Assembly (NCBI RefSeq): GCF_000020145.1
Contig: NC_010644.1
Location: forward strand, 62,001-126,000
Origin: Elusimicrobium minutum Pei191
GTDB lineage: Bacteria > Elusimicrobiota > Elusimicrobia > Elusimicrobiales > Elusimicrobiaceae
Reading direction: 5' to 3'
DNA: 64,000 bases
The position numbers and the translations under genes were made by a program. Every line of letters starts with the position of its first letter. The first letter of the stretch is position 1. Positions 50,209 through 58,535 of this stretch are shown here, piece by piece. The notes beneath the pieces are model-generated. The model saw only the letters and a list, made by a program, of their open reading frames with translations, searched no databases and was not told where the DNA came from.

Positions 50209-50243
50209 AAAAAACGCCCGCTTTTTTAAGCGGGCGTTTTTTT
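50209..50243. terminator. Bidirectional intrinsic terminator
   Basis: AAAAACGCCCGCTT, a short loop, then AAGCGGGCGTTTTTTT between mscL and comF. Confidence 0.9.
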
Positions 50244-50979
50244 AATGCTTAAAAGGCTCTCTTGCTATTGTAAGAGCGTAAATATTTTTTGCCCCGGCTT
50301 TTTTTAACGCTTCGGCGCAGGCTTCCAAAGTAGAGCCTGTTGTGGCAACATCGTCAATTAATAAAATGGTTTTGCCGGTTATTTTCCCTGCTGCTTTAAA
50401 AGCGTTTTTCATGTTAGAGGCTCTTTTTTCTTTATCTAAATTCACCTGGCTTTTTGTGTTTTTTATTCTTTTTAAGCTTTGCGGCACATAAGAAATATGT
50501 GTTGAGGCGGATAGTTTTTTTGCCAAAACCGCGCTTTGGTTGTACCCGCGCGCGCGGTAACGTAAACAGCTTAACGGAACGGGAACAACAATATCAACTT
50601 TTTTAAATTCGGGCGTTTGGTTAAATGTTTTTAAGAGCGCACTATTAAAAAAGTGTTTAAGGCGCAGGTGTTCATGATATTTAAAATTATGTATTAAACT
50701 TCTTATCTCAGGAGTAAAAATAAAGCAGGAACGGATTAGGGAACACTTAAATTTTTTTGCTTTTGCCCCGCTGCAATTAAAACAATATGTTCCGCCGGAG
50801 TCTAAATTTATACCGCATCTTTTACACTTAAGCGCGCCCATATCTTTTAAATTGCCGGCGCATTTTAGGCAAAGGGGTTCTTTGTAGTCTGCGGACAAAT
50901 CGCATTTACAATGGTGGCAGGTTTTTGGCAGCAAAAAATTTGCCAGGTAATTCTTTAGAGTTTTAATAATATTTTTCAT
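50242..50979 (-). CDS. ComF-family amidophosphoribosyltransferase-like protein
   Basis: 245 residues. Two N-terminal zinc-ribbon units (CHHC...CLKC and CKRC...CFNC) precede a PRTase domain ending in ILLIDDVATTGSTLEAC, the PRPP-binding loop. ComF proteins support DNA uptake in naturally competent bacteria, where type IV pili also take part. It ends the minus-strand unit after the SprA-like gene, starting 2 bp past its stop. Confidence 0.9.
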   Translation of the reverse strand: MKNIIKTLKNYLANFLLPKTCHHCKCDLSADYKEPLCLKCAGNLKDMGALKCKRCGINLDSGGTYCFNCSGAKAKKFKCSLIRSCFIFTPEIRSLIHNFKYHEHLRLKHFFNSALLKTFNQTPEFKKVDIVVPVPLSCLRYRARGYNQSAVLAKKLSASTHISYVPQSLKRIKNTKSQVNLDKEKRASNMKNAFKAAGKITGKTILLIDDVATTGSTLEACAEALKKAGAKNIYALTIAREPFKH

Positions 50980-50980
50980 G

Positions 50981-53900
50981 TTAGAACTGCAATGTTACCA
51001 TTGTTCCTATATTGTAACCTACGTAACTTTCAGATTCTACATACAAATGGTCTAATAATTGCACTCCGCCGTTTACTGTAAGGCGCAGATTTTTTGAAAA
51101 CTCGTAATCAAAACTGGTGTTAAAATCGTAATAATTTTTATTTTCCAAAACAACAACGTCGGAGCGCCGTTGGGTATAGGCGAAATTTGTGTTCCAGATA
51201 ATACGGTTTGTAGTGGCATAATTCCTGTTTATAAACGGAAGCCATATCCCGCCCGGCACGCTAAAATCCAAACGGCAGTTTAAGCTCGGGCTAAATTCTT
51301 CATACTGTTCGGTTACTATACCCATTCTTTGCTGGTTTTTGCTTTCAATAAAAGCAAGTTTAGGTGTTAAGCGGAACCGTTTAACAAAAAAGGATGTTTG
51401 CGCGCTGTATTCGTCACGAAGGATTTTTTCTGAAATTTCGTTGTTTCTTAAATCATTAGTGTCTCCGTCCCGGTGAGAATATATTAAAGCGGTATCAAAA
51501 ATTTTAATAAACATAAAACGCAGCTCAAGGCCGTAATTGTTTTCTTTTTTTAGCTGTGTGTTAAAAATTTCATTTTGTATATGCGTGTATCGCATTTTTA
51601 TATTTGTGGAAGTAAGCCAGTATGTTCCGCCATAAAGTTTTTCAAGTTCGCTCATGGTTATAACGGAGTCGGGCAAAGTACGTGAAGATGATTTTGATTC
51701 AGTTCCTGTTTCTTCCGTGGTTTGAAAACTTTGCGTAAAATTATTGATAATTGACAATGTTTTTAACGGCAGCAGATTCTCGGTAAACTCATATTCTCTG
51801 AAAGGGGACCACCTTTGGGAAGATGTAAAAGTATCCCTAAGCGTCATATTGCGCCGGAAAGCGTGTTTGTTTTTTGCGCCTAAATTGTTTCGTATCCACA
51901 AGTCGCTTTTTGAATCATAGCCGTCCTCAACGTACATATATGAATCAGCGTCTTGCAGCTTGTAGGAGTTAGATAAAACCAAATTGCCAAACAGTTTTGC
52001 TTTGGGGAAAATCTCTTTTACCGTAAGTGTTAACGCGACCCCGCCGTCCGCGCTTCTGTTAATGTTTTTAAGCTCACCTACACCGTATGCATCGCCGTTT
52101 GAGAAAGTAATTTCATTTAAATTATTTGTTTCATTGGTGCTTATATTGTAACTTACCGCGGGCATAAGCCATTTTGTTATTCTGAAATTACCGGTAAAAC
52201 CAGCCTGCTGTTGCATGCTTTTGTTATAACTTATAGCAGGAGCGCCGCCTCCGTCGCGGTCCTCTTTTACCGTGGTTAAACTGTAAGAAGGAGTGAAGGA
52301 GGAGCCTTTCCACGGCTCAAAACTTAACCGGGCGTTTACGCGTCTGGTATCTTCCGAAGAGTTGTAAGATGTGTTTGACGCTGAGTTAAGAAGCCTGTCG
52401 CTGTAATTAATATCATTATTTGCGCTTGTATACCCTAAACTTAAATCTCTTAAAAAAGATCCGCTTGGCAGAGTGTGGTTTACCGTAGCGTTATATGTGT
52501 TTCTAGCGTCATTACGCTCAGCCATATCATAGTCGGCGCGGTCAAAAATATATTCCATTCCCAGGCGAGGCATTTGCGGCTTAATAAAGTCCGCTTTAAT
52601 CTTTCCTGTTTTCTTTTCCACCACGCCTTGGTCTAAAGAAGTTATGGTGTTTGTATTGACGGAGTCGGAAATAGTTAAAGTTTCCACCCTGCTTTGCTCA
52701 TAAGTCGCGCTTATGGGAAGATAGTTAACTTTTGTAAGCCTCAAGTAGTAATCCTGAGTGGTATTTTTTTGATTAGTGTTGACGGTAACAGGCGTTTCAA
52801 ACTGGTCGTCTATACTTTTATATGTGCCGCCGGCTTCGCCCCAGCCGTTTAATTCCACTTTCATATCCGTTCTGTACGCGAGGCCTTTGGACGTAACTGA
52901 GTTCGCCATATGTATTTCATTAAGCCAAACCTCTCCCGAAGGGGAGCCCGGCATTCCCGTTTTTCTTTCGACACCGGCCAAAACCCGGCTTATTTTTTTG
53001 AAGTTAACGTTTGCCGGGCTTAAAGGGTCATTTACCGTGTCAACCGTAACGTTTGGGGTAATAGGTTCCAATATTTCGGGAATGCCGTTATTATCTTTAT
53101 CAGTAAGTTTTAATTTTATTAAATGCCATTTATTTGGAGCTAAATCTAAAGGAACATTTATCTGTTGGTAATTTTGGTCCGTACCCAAGCGCATAAAAAA
53201 CACGCTGTCAGGGTCGGAATCTTTTACGTGAAGGAGAAAGCGCAGCTCTTTATGCGTAGTCATATCCATGGAGCTGAAATTTCTGCTGGCATGTATTTCC
53301 TGATACGTCACTGTGTCATAATAAAAAGCTAAGGCCTGTTCAAAAATATTTTTATTTCTGCTTTCGGAACGGAGTTCGTCAAGAGAACCGTACAAATAGT
53401 TAAACACTTGTTTGCCGTCGCCGGCTGCGTCGTCAAATATAGGAAGATAATTGGTGTTGTCTGTTTTATTAATAGCCGTTATTTGGGATGTTTCCGAGTC
53501 TGGAGTCCACGCATTGCCTGAAACGCCGACATTTGCTATTTTTATTCTTCCCGTTCTGCTTCCGCCATTATATTTAAGGGAGATTCTTAAGTGTTTTATG
53601 TTTGTCCAGTTATCTTTTGTTAAAGAGGTTAAATTAAGGGGGGTTGTAAACGTTTCCCAGGTCGTGTTATTTAATATGCTCCCCGCCATGCCTGCTATAG
53701 GCTGGTTGATTGCGGCCGAAGCCGGGTAGCCGAAACTTCCGCCGATATTAGGGTTGCCGGTGTCTAAACGTCCGTTATTATCTAAATCTTGCGTATCCAC
53801 AATACCGTTAGGCTGTGAGAATCTGTTAAACTCATTATTTGCAAAAGGGTCATAACGCGCGGTCGTATTGTCCGGGTTAACAAACAGCCAGCCTCTGTCG

Positions 53901-56239
53901 TTTTCCGGAGATACCGAACCCCTGCAATAAAGGTCTTCGGTTTTAGGCACATAATCAGGCCAATATTTGCTGCAGGTTATAGTGTTGTCGCCTAAACTGC
54001 TGTCTGAGATTTCATTAATTTGGTCGAAATGCACGTTTATTAAAGGTCCGCTTGAATTGCCTAAAGCGGTTAATTCGAACATGGTTTTCTCTGACAGGTC
54101 AACACCGCTGTCACTCAAAGGATAAACTATTGAAACCTCATCCGAATTAGTGAAATCGTAATCAATAACCAAAACATCCTGTGAATCAGAAGAACTGCTT
54201 GCCGAGTTGGGGTTTATTTGAAGAGCGTTTATGCTCTGCGTATCCCAATGTACGGCTCCCCAATAAGAATTTTGCCCTGTGCTGGTCTCAAAGCCCGGGT
54301 TCGAAGCTATTTTCCAATCTCTAAAAATCACGCTTCCCGCGACCATTTGTTTCGCGTCGTCCATATTATCAATAAGAGCGTAGCCGAAGAGGTTTTTTTC
54401 CCTTACGCTTTGCGCCACTTCACCGGAAGCTGAAATTTTTAAATCCTCGGTAACCTGTACGTCTTTTGCTTTTATGTCCGCTTCATAAACTGTAAGCTGC
54501 TGTGTAAGAGAGTTAATATTGGGAGCGCTGTTTGAAGTGCTGCTCCCTTCTTGTAAAACAGTGGCGCCGACTCCTATGTTTTCAGTAAAATCGTAATCCA
54601 GCCTTGCTCCTAATAATGAAACATCCGAACTTGAACCGCCAGTTGTGTCATAAGTAACGTCTATGGTGGAGTCCTCCGTAACGGTGCCTTCTTTGTAAAA
54701 AGTTAAAAAACCGGAAGAGTAGTCAATATAATAATCCTCATTTCTTTTTAAAGTACGTCCGTTTACTTTAACGGTTTCAGATTGTACAACTATATTCGGT
54801 TCCACAAAATAGGATTTTACTTTTGAGTTTAATTCAACTCTGAAAGATAAGTTTCTTGTAGACAACGGCGTGTTGTTATAAACGCTGGCTTCATTTAAAC
54901 GTCTGTTAAGTTTGAATGTGCCTTTTTCAAAATCAACCTCAATATCTTGCGGGTAAATTTGTCCTTCTTGTTTGCTTATATTGTTCCCGTTAGCGTCTTG
55001 CAAAACAAGCGTAAAATTACCGTTGCCGTCATCACGCGTTATTTGTTTACGCCCGATATTATACATGGTTTTTACTTCCGTATATGTGCTTGCTCGGCCG
55101 GGCGCTATGGGTTTATCGTAAGCTGCTTTTAAAAGTTTATAAGTGCTTGCGGCGCCTATATCAAACAGGCGTTGGCCCGCGGTGTTTGTGTAATCAATAA
55201 CAACGCTGTCGCTTTCCGCGAGCGAGTTTCTAAAAACTATTAAACTGTTATTGTAGTCTATAGTATAATCAACACCTCTTTCCAAAAGTCTAAATTTTCC
55301 GCTTGATATAATTAAAGGGTCCGCCGTGTCTGAGTAAGATAAAGTTTCAAAGCGAAACTGGCTTGATGAAGACCCGTCATTAAGATAGATAAATTCGCTG
55401 TTTCTTGCTATTTGATATGTAAAAAAGGAGGCGCCGGGATCTGATGAGTCAAGCATTTCTCTTACGTTGTAGTATGTTCTTCGAATATAATCAATGTCGC
55501 GTATGGTAACAGTTTCAAAAACGCTGGTTCCCCTAAACTGTTTTGACCTGCTGGTACCTTTTGTTTTGCTGCCTATAAGTCTTAAGTTTGCTTTGTCATG
55601 CTGTAAATGCATTTTAGCGCCGAAAAGCTGTTTGTTAAAAGAAATAAATTCCGTTTTAGGCAGAGATAATTGTACGTCGCCAAATTCCGCGCTTTGGACA
55701 AGTTCCCCTTCTTTACCGCGGTATGACACAAAAATATCTCTGGTATCTTCGTTTTGGTTATCGTAATTGATATCAACAAAAATTCTGTCCACTATTCTGC
55801 CTTGCATTTTTACCTGCATTTGCTGTTCAAACGCGAAACTGCTAAAACTCTTTGAATCAGTAGAATTTTTGTTTTCGTTTTTATAATTTTTAGCTTCACT
55901 TTTAATACCTAATGTCTGTCTGCCTGTTAAGGAAATGCTTGTTCCTTGCAACGGGATCGCAAATGACGGACGCAGGCTGGTAATCGGCGGGGGGACATCT
56001 TTATCTAAAGGGTTATCTCCGTCTATAGAGCGGACGGCATCTCTCCAAAATTGTTCGGAATAATCCATCAGTTCAACATTGCTTAATTCTTCTGGCGCGG
56101 CGGGAAAACTATCCTCCGGTAATGCAAGAATAGTGTAATCTTCATCACCGAGGATTGATAAGCCGTATTCATTGCCAAATAAAGGCAACGATTGCGTTAA
56201 CAACAAAAGAGACAACGTTAAACTGATAATTTTTTTCAT
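50981..56239 (-). CDS. SprA/Sov-like giant outer-membrane protein
   Basis: 1752 residues with a signal peptide (LTLSLLLLTQSLPLFG). The N-terminal part has the SprA-type blocks VKMQGRIVDRIFVDINYDNQ and EFGDVQLSLPKTEF...LFGAKM, repeated beta-strand modules, and the protein ends VTLQF, typical of an outer-membrane barrel. In Bacteroidota SprA forms the type IX secretion translocon, but related proteins occur in phyla without a full type IX system. It is shorter than Flavobacterium SprA (about 2,400 residues). It lies in an envelope neighbourhood beside lptFG. No other type IX gene is seen here. Confidence 0.75.
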   Translation of the reverse strand: MKKIISLTLSLLLLTQSLPLFGNEYGLSILGDEDYTILALPEDSFPAAPEELSNVELMDYSEQFWRDAVRSIDGDNPLDKDVPPPITSLRPSFAIPLQGTSISLTGRQTLGIKSEAKNYKNENKNSTDSKSFSSFAFEQQMQVKMQGRIVDRIFVDINYDNQNEDTRDIFVSYRGKEGELVQSAEFGDVQLSLPKTEFISFNKQLFGAKMHLQHDKANLRLIGSKTKGTSRSKQFRGTSVFETVTIRDIDYIRRTYYNVREMLDSSDPGASFFTYQIARNSEFIYLNDGSSSSQFRFETLSYSDTADPLIISSGKFRLLERGVDYTIDYNNSLIVFRNSLAESDSVVIDYTNTAGQRLFDIGAASTYKLLKAAYDKPIAPGRASTYTEVKTMYNIGRKQITRDDGNGNFTLVLQDANGNNISKQEGQIYPQDIEVDFEKGTFKLNRRLNEASVYNNTPLSTRNLSFRVELNSKVKSYFVEPNIVVQSETVKVNGRTLKRNEDYYIDYSSGFLTFYKEGTVTEDSTIDVTYDTTGGSSSDVSLLGARLDYDFTENIGVGATVLQEGSSTSNSAPNINSLTQQLTVYEADIKAKDVQVTEDLKISASGEVAQSVREKNLFGYALIDNMDDAKQMVAGSVIFRDWKIASNPGFETSTGQNSYWGAVHWDTQSINALQINPNSASSSSDSQDVLVIDYDFTNSDEVSIVYPLSDSGVDLSEKTMFELTALGNSSGPLINVHFDQINEISDSSLGDNTITCSKYWPDYVPKTEDLYCRGSVSPENDRGWLFVNPDNTTARYDPFANNEFNRFSQPNGIVDTQDLDNNGRLDTGNPNIGGSFGYPASAAINQPIAGMAGSILNNTTWETFTTPLNLTSLTKDNWTNIKHLRISLKYNGGSRTGRIKIANVGVSGNAWTPDSETSQITAINKTDNTNYLPIFDDAAGDGKQVFNYLYGSLDELRSESRNKNIFEQALAFYYDTVTYQEIHASRNFSSMDMTTHKELRFLLHVKDSDPDSVFFMRLGTDQNYQQINVPLDLAPNKWHLIKLKLTDKDNNGIPEILEPITPNVTVDTVNDPLSPANVNFKKISRVLAGVERKTGMPGSPSGEVWLNEIHMANSVTSKGLAYRTDMKVELNGWGEAGGTYKSIDDQFETPVTVNTNQKNTTQDYYLRLTKVNYLPISATYEQSRVETLTISDSVNTNTITSLDQGVVEKKTGKIKADFIKPQMPRLGMEYIFDRADYDMAERNDARNTYNATVNHTLPSGSFLRDLSLGYTSANNDINYSDRLLNSASNTSYNSSEDTRRVNARLSFEPWKGSSFTPSYSLTTVKEDRDGGGAPAISYNKSMQQQAGFTGNFRITKWLMPAVSYNISTNETNNLNEITFSNGDAYGVGELKNINRSADGGVALTLTVKEIFPKAKLFGNLVLSNSYKLQDADSYMYVEDGYDSKSDLWIRNNLGAKNKHAFRRNMTLRDTFTSSQRWSPFREYEFTENLLPLKTLSIINNFTQSFQTTEETGTESKSSSRTLPDSVITMSELEKLYGGTYWLTSTNIKMRYTHIQNEIFNTQLKKENNYGLELRFMFIKIFDTALIYSHRDGDTNDLRNNEISEKILRDEYSAQTSFFVKRFRLTPKLAFIESKNQQRMGIVTEQYEEFSPSLNCRLDFSVPGGIWLPFINRNYATTNRIIWNTNFAYTQRRSDVVVLENKNYYDFNTSFDYEFSKNLRLTVNGGVQLLDHLYVESESYVGYNIGTMVTLQF

Positions 56240-56352: not shown

Positions 56353-57447
56353 ATGCGCATAAACATAATTTCCAAATACATGATTAAGAACCTGCTTACC
56401 TTCTTTTTAGGAGCCTTGTTTGTTCTTGTTTTCATCTTTTTCATGATGCACTTTATCAAACTCTTTAATCTCGCCATGACATTTGGCGCGGATATGCTGT
56501 GGGTTTTTAAAACACTTGTAAAACTTGTGCCGGATGTTTTTTCTTTGTGTGCCCCTATGGCGTTTCAACTTGCGGTGCTGCTTACTTTGGGCAACATGAG
56601 TGAAAACGGCGAGATTATAGCTTTGCGCGCGGCTGGTTTTTCTTTTAAAGAAATAACAAAACCTCTTTTTATTTTTGCCTTATTTTTGTTTCTTGTAATT
56701 TTCTCTTTCACAAACTGGATAACGCCTAAAAACACAAAATCGTTTTTAGACGCCAGAAATAACGTGCGCGGCCGCATAGGCAAGGTAATTCTGGAACCCA
56801 AAACTTTTATGGAAATAGGCGACTGGAGTTTGTATATGGAAAGCCTAGATCCCAAAACAAATCTTATGTCGCAGGTGCGTTTGTTAAACAAAAACGATTC
56901 TGCAAATTATACTACAAAAATTAACGCTTTAAGCGGTATAGTGAATGTTACAAGCGATTATGTGGGGCTTAAACTTTTTGACGGGCAGATGCAAAGAGTG
57001 TCTTCCGAAGATCCTTCTAAAATAATGGCCGCTAATTTTAAAAGCTATCATGTAACGTTTCCTCTTGTGAGAGCGAAAGAAAGAAGATTAAGAGAGGAGG
57101 AATTTACCACTCCGCAGCTTATAGCGCGTATTTATTCCGGCGAACTGACGGACAAAGAAAGAGCCGAGCATAAAACCAACGTAGCCATGAGGCAGGTTTT
57201 AGCCTTGTCGCCTTTGGTTTTGGTTTTACTAAGCTGTCCGTTGGTTTTTAGTTTCGGCAAAAGGGCTAATAAGGCTTGGGGTATGCTTTGGAGTATAGTT
57301 ATAGTTCTTTCATTTTACATGCTGCTTATGGCGGGTGTAAGCTTGGGTAAAAAATATGAAATTGCGGCGTATTTCGCGCCGTTTTTACCGATAGCGGCAG
57401 GGTTAATAGTTTCGAGATATTTATGGAAAACAAGATTGAAAAGATAA
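56353..57447 (+). CDS. lptF: LPS export permease LptF (YjgP/YjgQ)
   Basis: 364 residues with six membrane segments and the large periplasmic beta-jellyroll loop between helices 3 and 4. IISKYMIKNLLTFFLGALFVLVFIFF opens the protein, and LVLLSCPLVFSFGKR opens the C-terminal helices. With LptG and LptB it extracts LPS from the inner membrane. It overlaps lptG by 25 bp. Which of the pair is F or G is assigned by order only. Confidence 0.9.
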   Translation: MRINIISKYMIKNLLTFFLGALFVLVFIFFMMHFIKLFNLAMTFGADMLWVFKTLVKLVPDVFSLCAPMAFQLAVLLTLGNMSENGEIIALRAAGFSFKEITKPLFIFALFLFLVIFSFTNWITPKNTKSFLDARNNVRGRIGKVILEPKTFMEIGDWSLYMESLDPKTNLMSQVRLLNKNDSANYTTKINALSGIVNVTSDYVGLKLFDGQMQRVSSEDPSKIMAANFKSYHVTFPLVRAKERRLREEEFTTPQLIARIYSGELTDKERAEHKTNVAMRQVLALSPLVLVLLSCPLVFSFGKRANKAWGMLWSIVIVLSFYMLLMAGVSLGKKYEIAAYFAPFLPIAAGLIVSRYLWKTRLKR

Positions 57448-58535
57448 AACCTAAAATACTTTACAGATACATAGCCTCAAAATTTTGGATGCCGTTTTTC
57501 TTTGCGATGGCAATGTTTTGCATTTTAGTTTTGTTAGGTGATTTTTTTGAGAATATAAAAAGCATCACCAACGGCTATGCCACATTCAGACTGATTTTAA
57601 AATATTGTTTTTTAAATTTACCCAGCTGGCTGGGCATGCTTTTGCCGGTTGCCTGCCTGCTTGCTGTTTTATTTGTTATTTCCGACATGGTCGCCGGCGG
57701 GGAATGGACCGCCTGTCTGGCAAGCGGCTACAGGCCTGGGCAACTGTTTGTTCCTTTAATCGCGTGTGTTATTTTGGTTGTTTTTCTTAATTCCTTAATG
57801 CAGGAGTTTGTTTATCCGCGCGTCAGCCAAAAGGCTGAGCAGGTATTTCGCAGGCAGCTCCGGGGGGATAAAGATTTTCAAGCAGGTATAGAAAGAAATA
57901 TTACGTTAAGAATTAATCCCCGCCAAATGCTTTTGGCGCAAACTTTACAAAGCGGTTCCTTGACTATGTACGGCATAACAACGGAATTTTATAATGAAAA
58001 TTGGGAAATAGAAAAGCAGATAGTGGCCAGAAATCTTGTGTGGGATAAAGACGAAAAAATTTGGTTTTATAAAGACGGCGTAATACGTTATTTCGAAGAG
58101 GGTATAACCATAAGAGAAGAAGTTTTTGATACGCTTGAATCTGATTTAAAAGTAGCGCCTAAAGATATCAGCGTAGGCGATATTGAAGAAAAAGCAATCA
58201 GCGTGCGTGAGTTGCTTAAAAAAATAAGCTTTTTGGGCCGTAGTGGTTTAGTGACTTATAAAGAAAAAACAAATTTGCATAATAAACTGGCTATGCCTGT
58301 TATGACTATAATTATGTGCTTGATAGGAATGCCTTTCGCAGTAACCGTAAGAAAAAGGGGCAAAGTAATAAATATTATCGCCGCTCTTGTAATGTCTTTT
58401 TCTTTCTGGTGGGTAATGACAATGGCAAGCACAGCGGGGCAAAACGGAATTTTAAGCCCTTTTATAGCAGGTTGGGGAATTGTTGTTTTGGCCGCCGCCG
58501 CTGTTTTTATTGAATTTAAAATAATGAAAATATAA
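57423..58535 (+). CDS. lptG: LPS export permease LptG (YjgP/YjgQ)
   Basis: 370 residues, same fold as the gene before it: KILYRYIASKFWMPFFFAMAMFCILVLL, an inner periplasmic domain, and IIMCLIGMPFAVTVRKRGKV at the start of the C-terminal helices. It starts within lptF, so the subunits are probably made in equal amount. LptB, C and A are not in the window. Confidence 0.9.
   Translation: MENKIEKIKPKILYRYIASKFWMPFFFAMAMFCILVLLGDFFENIKSITNGYATFRLILKYCFLNLPSWLGMLLPVACLLAVLFVISDMVAGGEWTACLASGYRPGQLFVPLIACVILVVFLNSLMQEFVYPRVSQKAEQVFRRQLRGDKDFQAGIERNITLRINPRQMLLAQTLQSGSLTMYGITTEFYNENWEIEKQIVARNLVWDKDEKIWFYKDGVIRYFEEGITIREEVFDTLESDLKVAPKDISVGDIEEKAISVRELLKKISFLGRSGLVTYKEKTNLHNKLAMPVMTIIMCLIGMPFAVTVRKRGKVINIIAALVMSFSFWWVMTMASTAGQNGILSPFIAGWGIVVLAAAAVFIEFKIMKI

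What the first reader, a model, noticed from the sequence alone, without database searches (positions are those of the whole stretch)
50981..56239. SprA/Sov-like outer-membrane giant outside a visible type IX locus
The 1752-residue protein has SprA-like N-terminal blocks and a barrel-type C-terminus, yet no por, gld or sprE/T gene accompanies it. It could be a distant secretion channel of its own kind. Its partners here are comF on the same strand and lptFG divergent.
Basis: partly seen in the sequence, partly recalled or inferred. Interest (0 to 1): 0.55.

Follow-up and report, generated by a model that had tools for sequence, protein, structure and literature searches.

The report
SprA-type secretion channel in Elusimicrobiota
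This giant gene encodes an outer-membrane protein-export channel of the kind thought to be confined to Bacteroidota and their relatives, here shared by nearly a whole other phylum together with its carrier and cargo proteins but without its known motor, which suggests a stripped-down version of that secretion system.

Summary
Confirmed and extended. The 1752-aa protein is a true, distant relative of SprA/Sov, the type IX (T9SS) outer-membrane translocon. Profile, PDB-profile and Foldseek searches all return SprA first, although it misses the curated SprA cut-off (114 of 200 bits). It is a phylum-wide gene: 57 of 60 Elusimicrobiota genomes. Of the three without it, two show no trace and one keeps a decayed remnant. 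Across the phylum PorV-family genes (59 of 60) and C-terminal signals (43 of 60) are abundant and sit as cargo-then-PorV pairs (28 of 28 in that order and strand; about 1.7 expected). In Bacteroidota type A cargo share one PorV. GldL, GldM and GldN were not credibly found in 60 genomes, but no positive control was reachable. Most likely a SprA–PorV–CTD export system, serving here one recognised cargo inside a Tad operon. No paper found by my searches reports it.

The parts
50981..56239 (-). SprA/Sov-like outer-membrane translocon, 1752 aa
56174..56239 (-). signal-peptide-like N-terminus (residues 1-22)
   Evidence: read from the sequence; no signal-peptide predictor was run
55478..56098 (-). 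SprA block 1 (residues 48-254; TIGR04189 positions 41-251)
   Evidence: PDB profile match to F. johnsoniae SprA 150-267
54524..54796 (-). SprA block 2 (TIGR04189 positions 603-694)
   Evidence: PDB profile match to SprA 701-779
53132..53659 (-). SprA block 3 (TIGR04189 positions 1143-1335)
   Evidence: PDB profile match to SprA 1020-1627
52889..54397 (-). central region (about residues 615-1117) holding a carbohydrate-binding-module-like jelly roll
   Evidence: (CBM_11 in 3 of 24 relatives)
50984..52771 (-). C-terminal barrel region (about residues 1157-1752), 25 long strands in the model
50242..50979 (-). comF-like gene directly downstream; conserved neighbour, functional link not shown
56353..57447 (+). 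LptF/LptG-type permease 1, divergent; conserved neighbour, functional link not shown
57423..58535 (+). LptF/LptG-type permease 2, divergent; conserved neighbour, functional link not shown

Best explanation
The gene encodes the outer-membrane translocon (SprA/Sov homologue) of a type-IX-like protein export system of the phylum Elusimicrobiota. Shown by sequence and predicted fold: it is a SprA homologue. Shown by genome search: the same genome holds one clear PorV-family protein, and that gene lies 13 bp downstream of one large signal-peptide-like cargo with a type-A-like C-terminal domain (CTD). Inferred by analogy with Flavobacterium johnsoniae: cargo crosses the inner membrane by Sec, its CTD enters the SprA pore, PorV docks at the pore's lateral opening, binds the CTD and carries the cargo to the cell surface. 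Inferred from gene pairing: a cargo tends to be served by its own PorV paralogue, unlike Bacteroidota type A cargo, which share one PorV. How export is energised is unknown: no recognisable GldL, GldM or GldN was found.
For: Homology: TIGR04189 E 3.3e-33, 24 of 24 relatives match it; the profile of 24 relatives matches only F. johnsoniae SprA in the whole PDB (2 distinct sequences, E about 1e-26, collinear). Fold: SprA chains are the top four Foldseek hits for both overlapping models (E 1.5e-44 and 6.6e-34; next unrelated chain 3.2e-4 and 3.6e-6). Distribution: 57 of 60 genomes. Partners: PorV_fam 59 of 60, type A CTD tail 43 of 60. Pairing: 28 of 150 listed PorV have a listed CTD within 1.5 kb, 28 of 28 same strand with the CTD gene 5', about 1.7 expected; in Elusimicrobiaceae 21 of 22 same-strand genes directly 5' of a PorV end in a CTD-like tail, the 22nd being cut to 70 aa by the contig. 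Own genome: PorV, cargo. Physical link: 10 of 25 SprA loci outside the window carry a CTD-bearing gene within about 7 kb. Co-loss: the three genomes without intact SprA have no TIGR04183 match.
Against: The protein misses the curated TIGR04189 cut-off (114 vs 200 bits). The own-genome PorV is just under its cut-off (86 vs 90). The own cargo's CTD is weak in curated models (Por_Secre_tail 0.01; the single own TIGR04183 hit is 8.2e-4). The tails resemble FlgD Ig-like domains, so some TIGR04183 hits could be non-signal Ig domains. Nine of 19 same-strand genes 5' of PorV outside Elusimicrobiaceae lack a CTD tail. G008 keeps a PorV-family gene (2.5e-25) without SprA. 14 of 57 SprA-positive genomes have no TIGR04183 hit. 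In the VIA-align look at the C-terminal model, TonB-dependent barrels tie with SprA. No transport was shown.
Confidence: 0.85

Rival explanations
1. A canonical type IX system: a GldL/GldM motor and GldK/GldN hub are present but too diverged for the models used.
For: SprA and PorV are themselves strongly diverged; GldL and GldM/GldN searches had no positive control among the 14 control genomes. Motor-deleted F. johnsoniae traps substrate in SprA, so some energy source is expected.
Against: GldM 0 of 60 at E<=0.001; GldN 1 of 60 at 0.084; GldL 10 of 60 at E<=0.1, best 1.8e-5, own none, with 5 of 14 control genomes ringing as well, whereas SprA and PorV models ring clearly in the same genomes.
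Confidence: 0.35
2. A SprA homologue with another job, such as outer-membrane or LPS biogenesis, given the conserved lptFG and comF neighbours.
For: LptF/LptG-type genes flank SprA in 23 of 26 loci and comF in 19 of 26.
Against: Phylum-wide PorV and CTD pairs, CTD genes near SprA in 10 of 25 loci, and loss of SprA without CTDs in three f6 genomes. An essential biogenesis role would not be expected to decay.
Confidence: 0.08
3. Not SprA at all: a generic large beta-barrel (TonB-dependent or LptD-like).
For: TonB-dependent barrels tie with SprA in the VIA-align look at the C-terminal model.
Against: Sequence profile and Foldseek evidence is specific to SprA by many orders of magnitude, and SprA leads in the N-terminal model (Z 18.4, 914 residues aligned, rmsd 12.2).
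Confidence: 0.01

Closest known systems
SprA of Flavobacterium johnsoniae (PDB 6h3i, 6h3j, 8gl6, 8gl8), TIGR04189
   Same: Three collinear sequence blocks and best fold match of both overlapping model halves
   Different: 1752 aa against 2403; 114 bits against a cut-off of 200; shares about 12-17% identity in structural alignments; found in Elusimicrobiota
Type A T9SS export with PorV (F. johnsoniae; PMC10994853, passages read)
   Same: SprA + PorV-family protein + C-terminal Ig-like signal in one genome and across the phylum
   Different: Many PorV paralogues, each tending to be encoded directly downstream of a cargo; no recognised GldL/M/N
Type B CTD with cognate PorP/SprF shuttle (PMC12618676, passages read)
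   Same: Shuttle gene directly downstream of its cargo gene
   Different: Here the tails match type A models and the shuttle matches PorV_fam rather than PorP/SprF best
NCBIfam NF052323 (T9SS-dependent M6-like inactivated metalloprotease) and NF052325 (PorV2)
   Same: M6-protease/CTD proteins and PorV-like barrels near SprA in other Elusimicrobiota classes match them weakly (2.3e-26 and 6.8e-10)
   Different: Far below their curated cut-offs (92 of 600 and 38 of 325 bits)

Membership tests
SprA/Sov translocon superfamily | sequence homology along the chain | tested here: met
SprA/Sov translocon superfamily | SprA fold as nearest solved structure | tested here: met
   Foldseek, both model halves; the whole chain was not modelled in one piece
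TIGR04189 equivalog (T9SS translocon Sov/SprA) | score over the curated cut-off of 200 bits | tested here: not met
   114.1 bits
SprA/Sov translocon superfamily | lateral opening that PorV docks on | not testable with these tools
Type IX secretion system | PorV-family carrier in the genome | tested here: met
   own 3.5e-24, 86 bits against a cut-off of 90; over cut-off in 39 of 60 genomes
Type IX secretion system | cargo with C-terminal type A signal | tested here: met
   over cut-off in 42 of 60 genomes; own cargo weaker but one strong hit to the family-specific profile, 4.0e-67, from an alignment that includes it
Type IX secretion system | GldL/GldM (PorL/PorM) motor | tested here: inconclusive
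   none credible in 60 genomes, but no control genome had them
Type IX secretion system | GldN (PorN) ring component | tested here: inconclusive
   1 of 60 at E 0.084, no control rang
Type IX secretion system | GldK, SprE, SprT, PorU, PorQ, PPI, Plug, SkpA | not tested
Type IX secretion system | export of cargo to the surface | not testable with these tools
   needs experiment

The most novel reading that the evidence does not exclude
A type-IX-like system that works without the GldLM/KN motor and hub. Each type A cargo has its own PorV, which leaves the translocon with it, and in Elusimicrobiaceae the one recognised cargo/PorV pair is coupled to a Tad machine (tadE-cpaB-secretin-tadA-tadB-tadC), which either supplies the energy or uses the cargo as its surface partner.
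Probability: 0.25. Interest if true: 0.87.

Novelty: new variant of a known kind. Interest (0 to 1): 0.68.

Why it matters
[quoted passage not shown] A phylum-wide SprA–PorV–CTD set in Elusimicrobiota contradicts that at the component level, implies either an older origin or an old transfer of the translocon, and gives a natural test of which parts of T9SS are the core. A genome with one translocon, one PorV and one recognised cargo of its type is an attractive minimal model for how SprA and PorV pass a substrate through the outer membrane and what drives it.

Tried and rejected
SprA_N (PF14349) rang nowhere, not even in this genome, though 2 of 24 relatives match it; it is too narrow for this lineage. 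phmmer with the single protein found nothing real in the PDB; the profile did. The genome-contig scan returned only Elusimicrobiota among the best 80 of 344, so it says nothing about other phyla. GldL hits were rejected as noise because 5 of 14 control genomes ring too. Other PorV_fam hits of the own genome (L178-L181) were set aside: L178 is a FadL/Toluene_X barrel, L180/L181 looks like L178 by eye, and L179 has no Pfam match.

Rows dropped: of 60 PorV loci, 11 failed my motif filter for the PorV ORF, 7 had no upstream gene in hand and 1 had an opposite-strand neighbour, leaving 41 (22 Elusimicrobiaceae, 19 other). The lists behind one search are cut at the best 150 hits each, so 28 is a lower bound. 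In one search the stricter rule (hit ends within 10 aa of the C-terminus) gave 17 of 41; the rule was then relaxed to a start within 160 aa of the C-terminus, because the Elusimicrobiaceae tail carries an insert, giving 31 of 41. The relaxation was made after seeing the first result. Under the relaxed rule 27 of 614 genes in 46 loci are positive. In the window's alignment set, antisense frames and one overlong or shifted ORF each were left out, 45 of 81 rows being kept.

Papers: search listings seen; passages read of PMC12204202, PMC8542988, PMC7031533, PMC4793230, PMC11205867, PMC11285876, PMC10994853, PMC12618676, PMC8857248, PMC12635249; no paper was read whole. The E. minutum genome paper (PMC2681670) is not held.

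Full report
What is there. The ORF at 50981-56239 (minus) encodes 1752 aa. comF starts one base after the stop, and two LptF/LptG-type permeases are divergent.

It is SprA. NCBIfam TIGR04189 (Sov/SprA) matches at 3.3e-33, 114 bits, below the curated 200, in three collinear stretches that are the only matches in the genome, with none in 14 control genomes. All 24 aligned relatives match it, best 6.6e-49. A profile of these 24 against all PDB chains hits two distinct sequences up to E 10, both F. johnsoniae SprA, at about 1e-26. Two overlapping halves (residues 40-1190 and 570-1752; mean pLDDT 76.7 and 84.1) were modelled from 45 sequences each. In Foldseek the four SprA entries lead both lists: 1.5e-44 against 3.2e-4 for the next chain, and 6.6e-34 against 3.6e-6. 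VIA-align agrees for the N-terminal half (8gl6_A Z 18.4, rmsd 12.2, 914 aligned). For the C-terminal half SprA (8gl8_A Z 16.3, rmsd 12.8, 973 aligned) ties with TonB-dependent barrels, which align over about 400 residues. The high rmsd and modest TM-scores fit open half-barrels; the closed pore was not modelled.

It is a core gene of the phylum. 57 of 60 genomes drawn from the phylum have it (30 of 31 genera), nearly always once and 1700-1900 aa long. With the profile, G008 and G050 still have none, and G017 has a remnant broken by stops. All three belong to one family (f6); G017 and G050 have 1.0-1.1 Mb genomes. That pattern fits a surface function lost in reduced genomes; that f6 includes protist endosymbionts is my recollection, not a call. 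Neighbours are conserved: LptF/G-type genes adjacent in 23 of 26 loci, comF directly downstream in 19 of 26.

It has partners. PorV_fam (NF033709) matches in 59 of 60 genomes, over cut-off in 39; type A sorting tails (TIGR04183) in 43 of 60, over cut-off in 42, up to 67 per genome. The three SprA-less genomes have no TIGR04183 hit; PorV hits there are 2 (G008), 1 weak (G017) and 0 (G050). Among the 150 best PorV and 150 best CTD hits listed, 28 PorV have a CTD within 1.5 kb, and in 28 of 28 the CTD gene is on the same strand and immediately 5'; random placement predicts about 1.7. With a profile made from eight TIGR04183 tails, 21 of 22 same-strand genes directly 5' of PorV in Elusimicrobiaceae have a CTD-like tail (the other is a 70-aa fragment), and 10 of 19 elsewhere; 27 of 614 genes in 46 loci are positive, the 27 being the genes paired with PorV in these loci, M6-protease genes near SprA, and one further gene (L037) that lies 5' of a PorV-like gene. 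Near SprA in other classes there are PorV-like barrels in 12 of 26 loci and M6 proteases in 10 of 26. A tested M6 protein carries an over-cut-off type A tail (28.5 against 23 bits) and matches 'T9SS-dependent M6-like inactivated metalloprotease'.

In this genome. One clear PorV (324 aa, 3.5e-24) lies 13 bp downstream of a 1397-aa protein with a signal-peptide-like start, FlgD-Ig-like repeats and a CTD-like end. A profile of 14 such tails, this one included, finds exactly one in the genome. The pair is followed on the same strand by tadE, cpaB, a short secretin, tadA, tadB and tadC. The arrangement recurs: 16 of 20 Elusimicrobiaceae loci fetched have PorV next to Tad genes. The other four are second-type or unrelated PorV loci (L233, L234, L239, L240).

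How it most likely works. By analogy with F. johnsoniae, where the CTD binds inside the SprA pore to PorV loops that enter by a lateral opening and the motor is needed for extraction (PMC10994853 passages), cargo should pass through SprA and leave with its PorV. In F. johnsoniae all type A cargo share one PorV, while type B cargo have a PorP/SprF encoded directly downstream (PMC12618676 passages). Elusimicrobiota combine a type-A-like tail and PorV with the type B habit of a dedicated downstream shuttle. Homology and gene pairing are shown; transport, specificity and energy source are inferred or open.

The motor. GldM 0 of 60, GldN 1 of 60 at 0.084, GldL only noise. No control genome carries them, so absence is not proven. 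GldK, SprE, SprT and PorU were not searched.

Against what is known. PMC11285876 says T9SS genes are absent outside the FCB phyla, PMC4793230 found them only in Bacteroidetes, and PMC11205867 limits T9SS to the FCB superphylum. Searches pairing SprA, PorV, T9SS or 'type IX secretion' with Elusimicrobi gave no paper describing this; only open-licence PMC papers were searched. NCBI's models PorV2 and M6-like T9SS-dependent protease show that curators have noted related pairs somewhere. I therefore file it as a SprA-superfamily translocon in a new variant of the type IX kind, not as a proven T9SS.

Noticed in passing
L182 758-14518 (own genome C1 about 1298757-1312517): Cargo and PorV genes sit in one direction with tadE, cpaB, a 248-aa secretin, tadA, tadB, tadC and a TPR gene; the order recurs in 16 of 20 Elusimicrobiaceae loci.
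   Followed up: partly
window 53762-53827 (minus): An Asp-rich, EF-hand- or dockerin-like loop in the SprA homologue, with conserved Asp and Gly across 24 relatives; looks calcium-binding by eye.
   Followed up: no
window about 54623-54781 (minus), residues 487-539: A short hairpin motif matches a phage tail-tube model in 14 of 24 relatives and a distal-tail model in 3 of 24.
   Followed up: no
A4; L177, L185, L191 and others: The CTD of Elusimicrobiaceae cargo carries an insert of about 45 aa flanked by well-conserved cysteines.
   Followed up: no
L186-L189, L202, L233, L234: A second cargo/PorV pair type (cargo 1160-1171 aa, PorV 367 aa) in one sister genus, not in the Tad operon.
   Followed up: partly
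G017:C1 about 953447-954112 (L219, L220): A decayed SprA remnant with several stops in a 1.1-Mb genome.
   Followed up: partly
G008: PorV-family match at 2.5e-25 although no SprA and no CTD tail were found.
   Followed up: no
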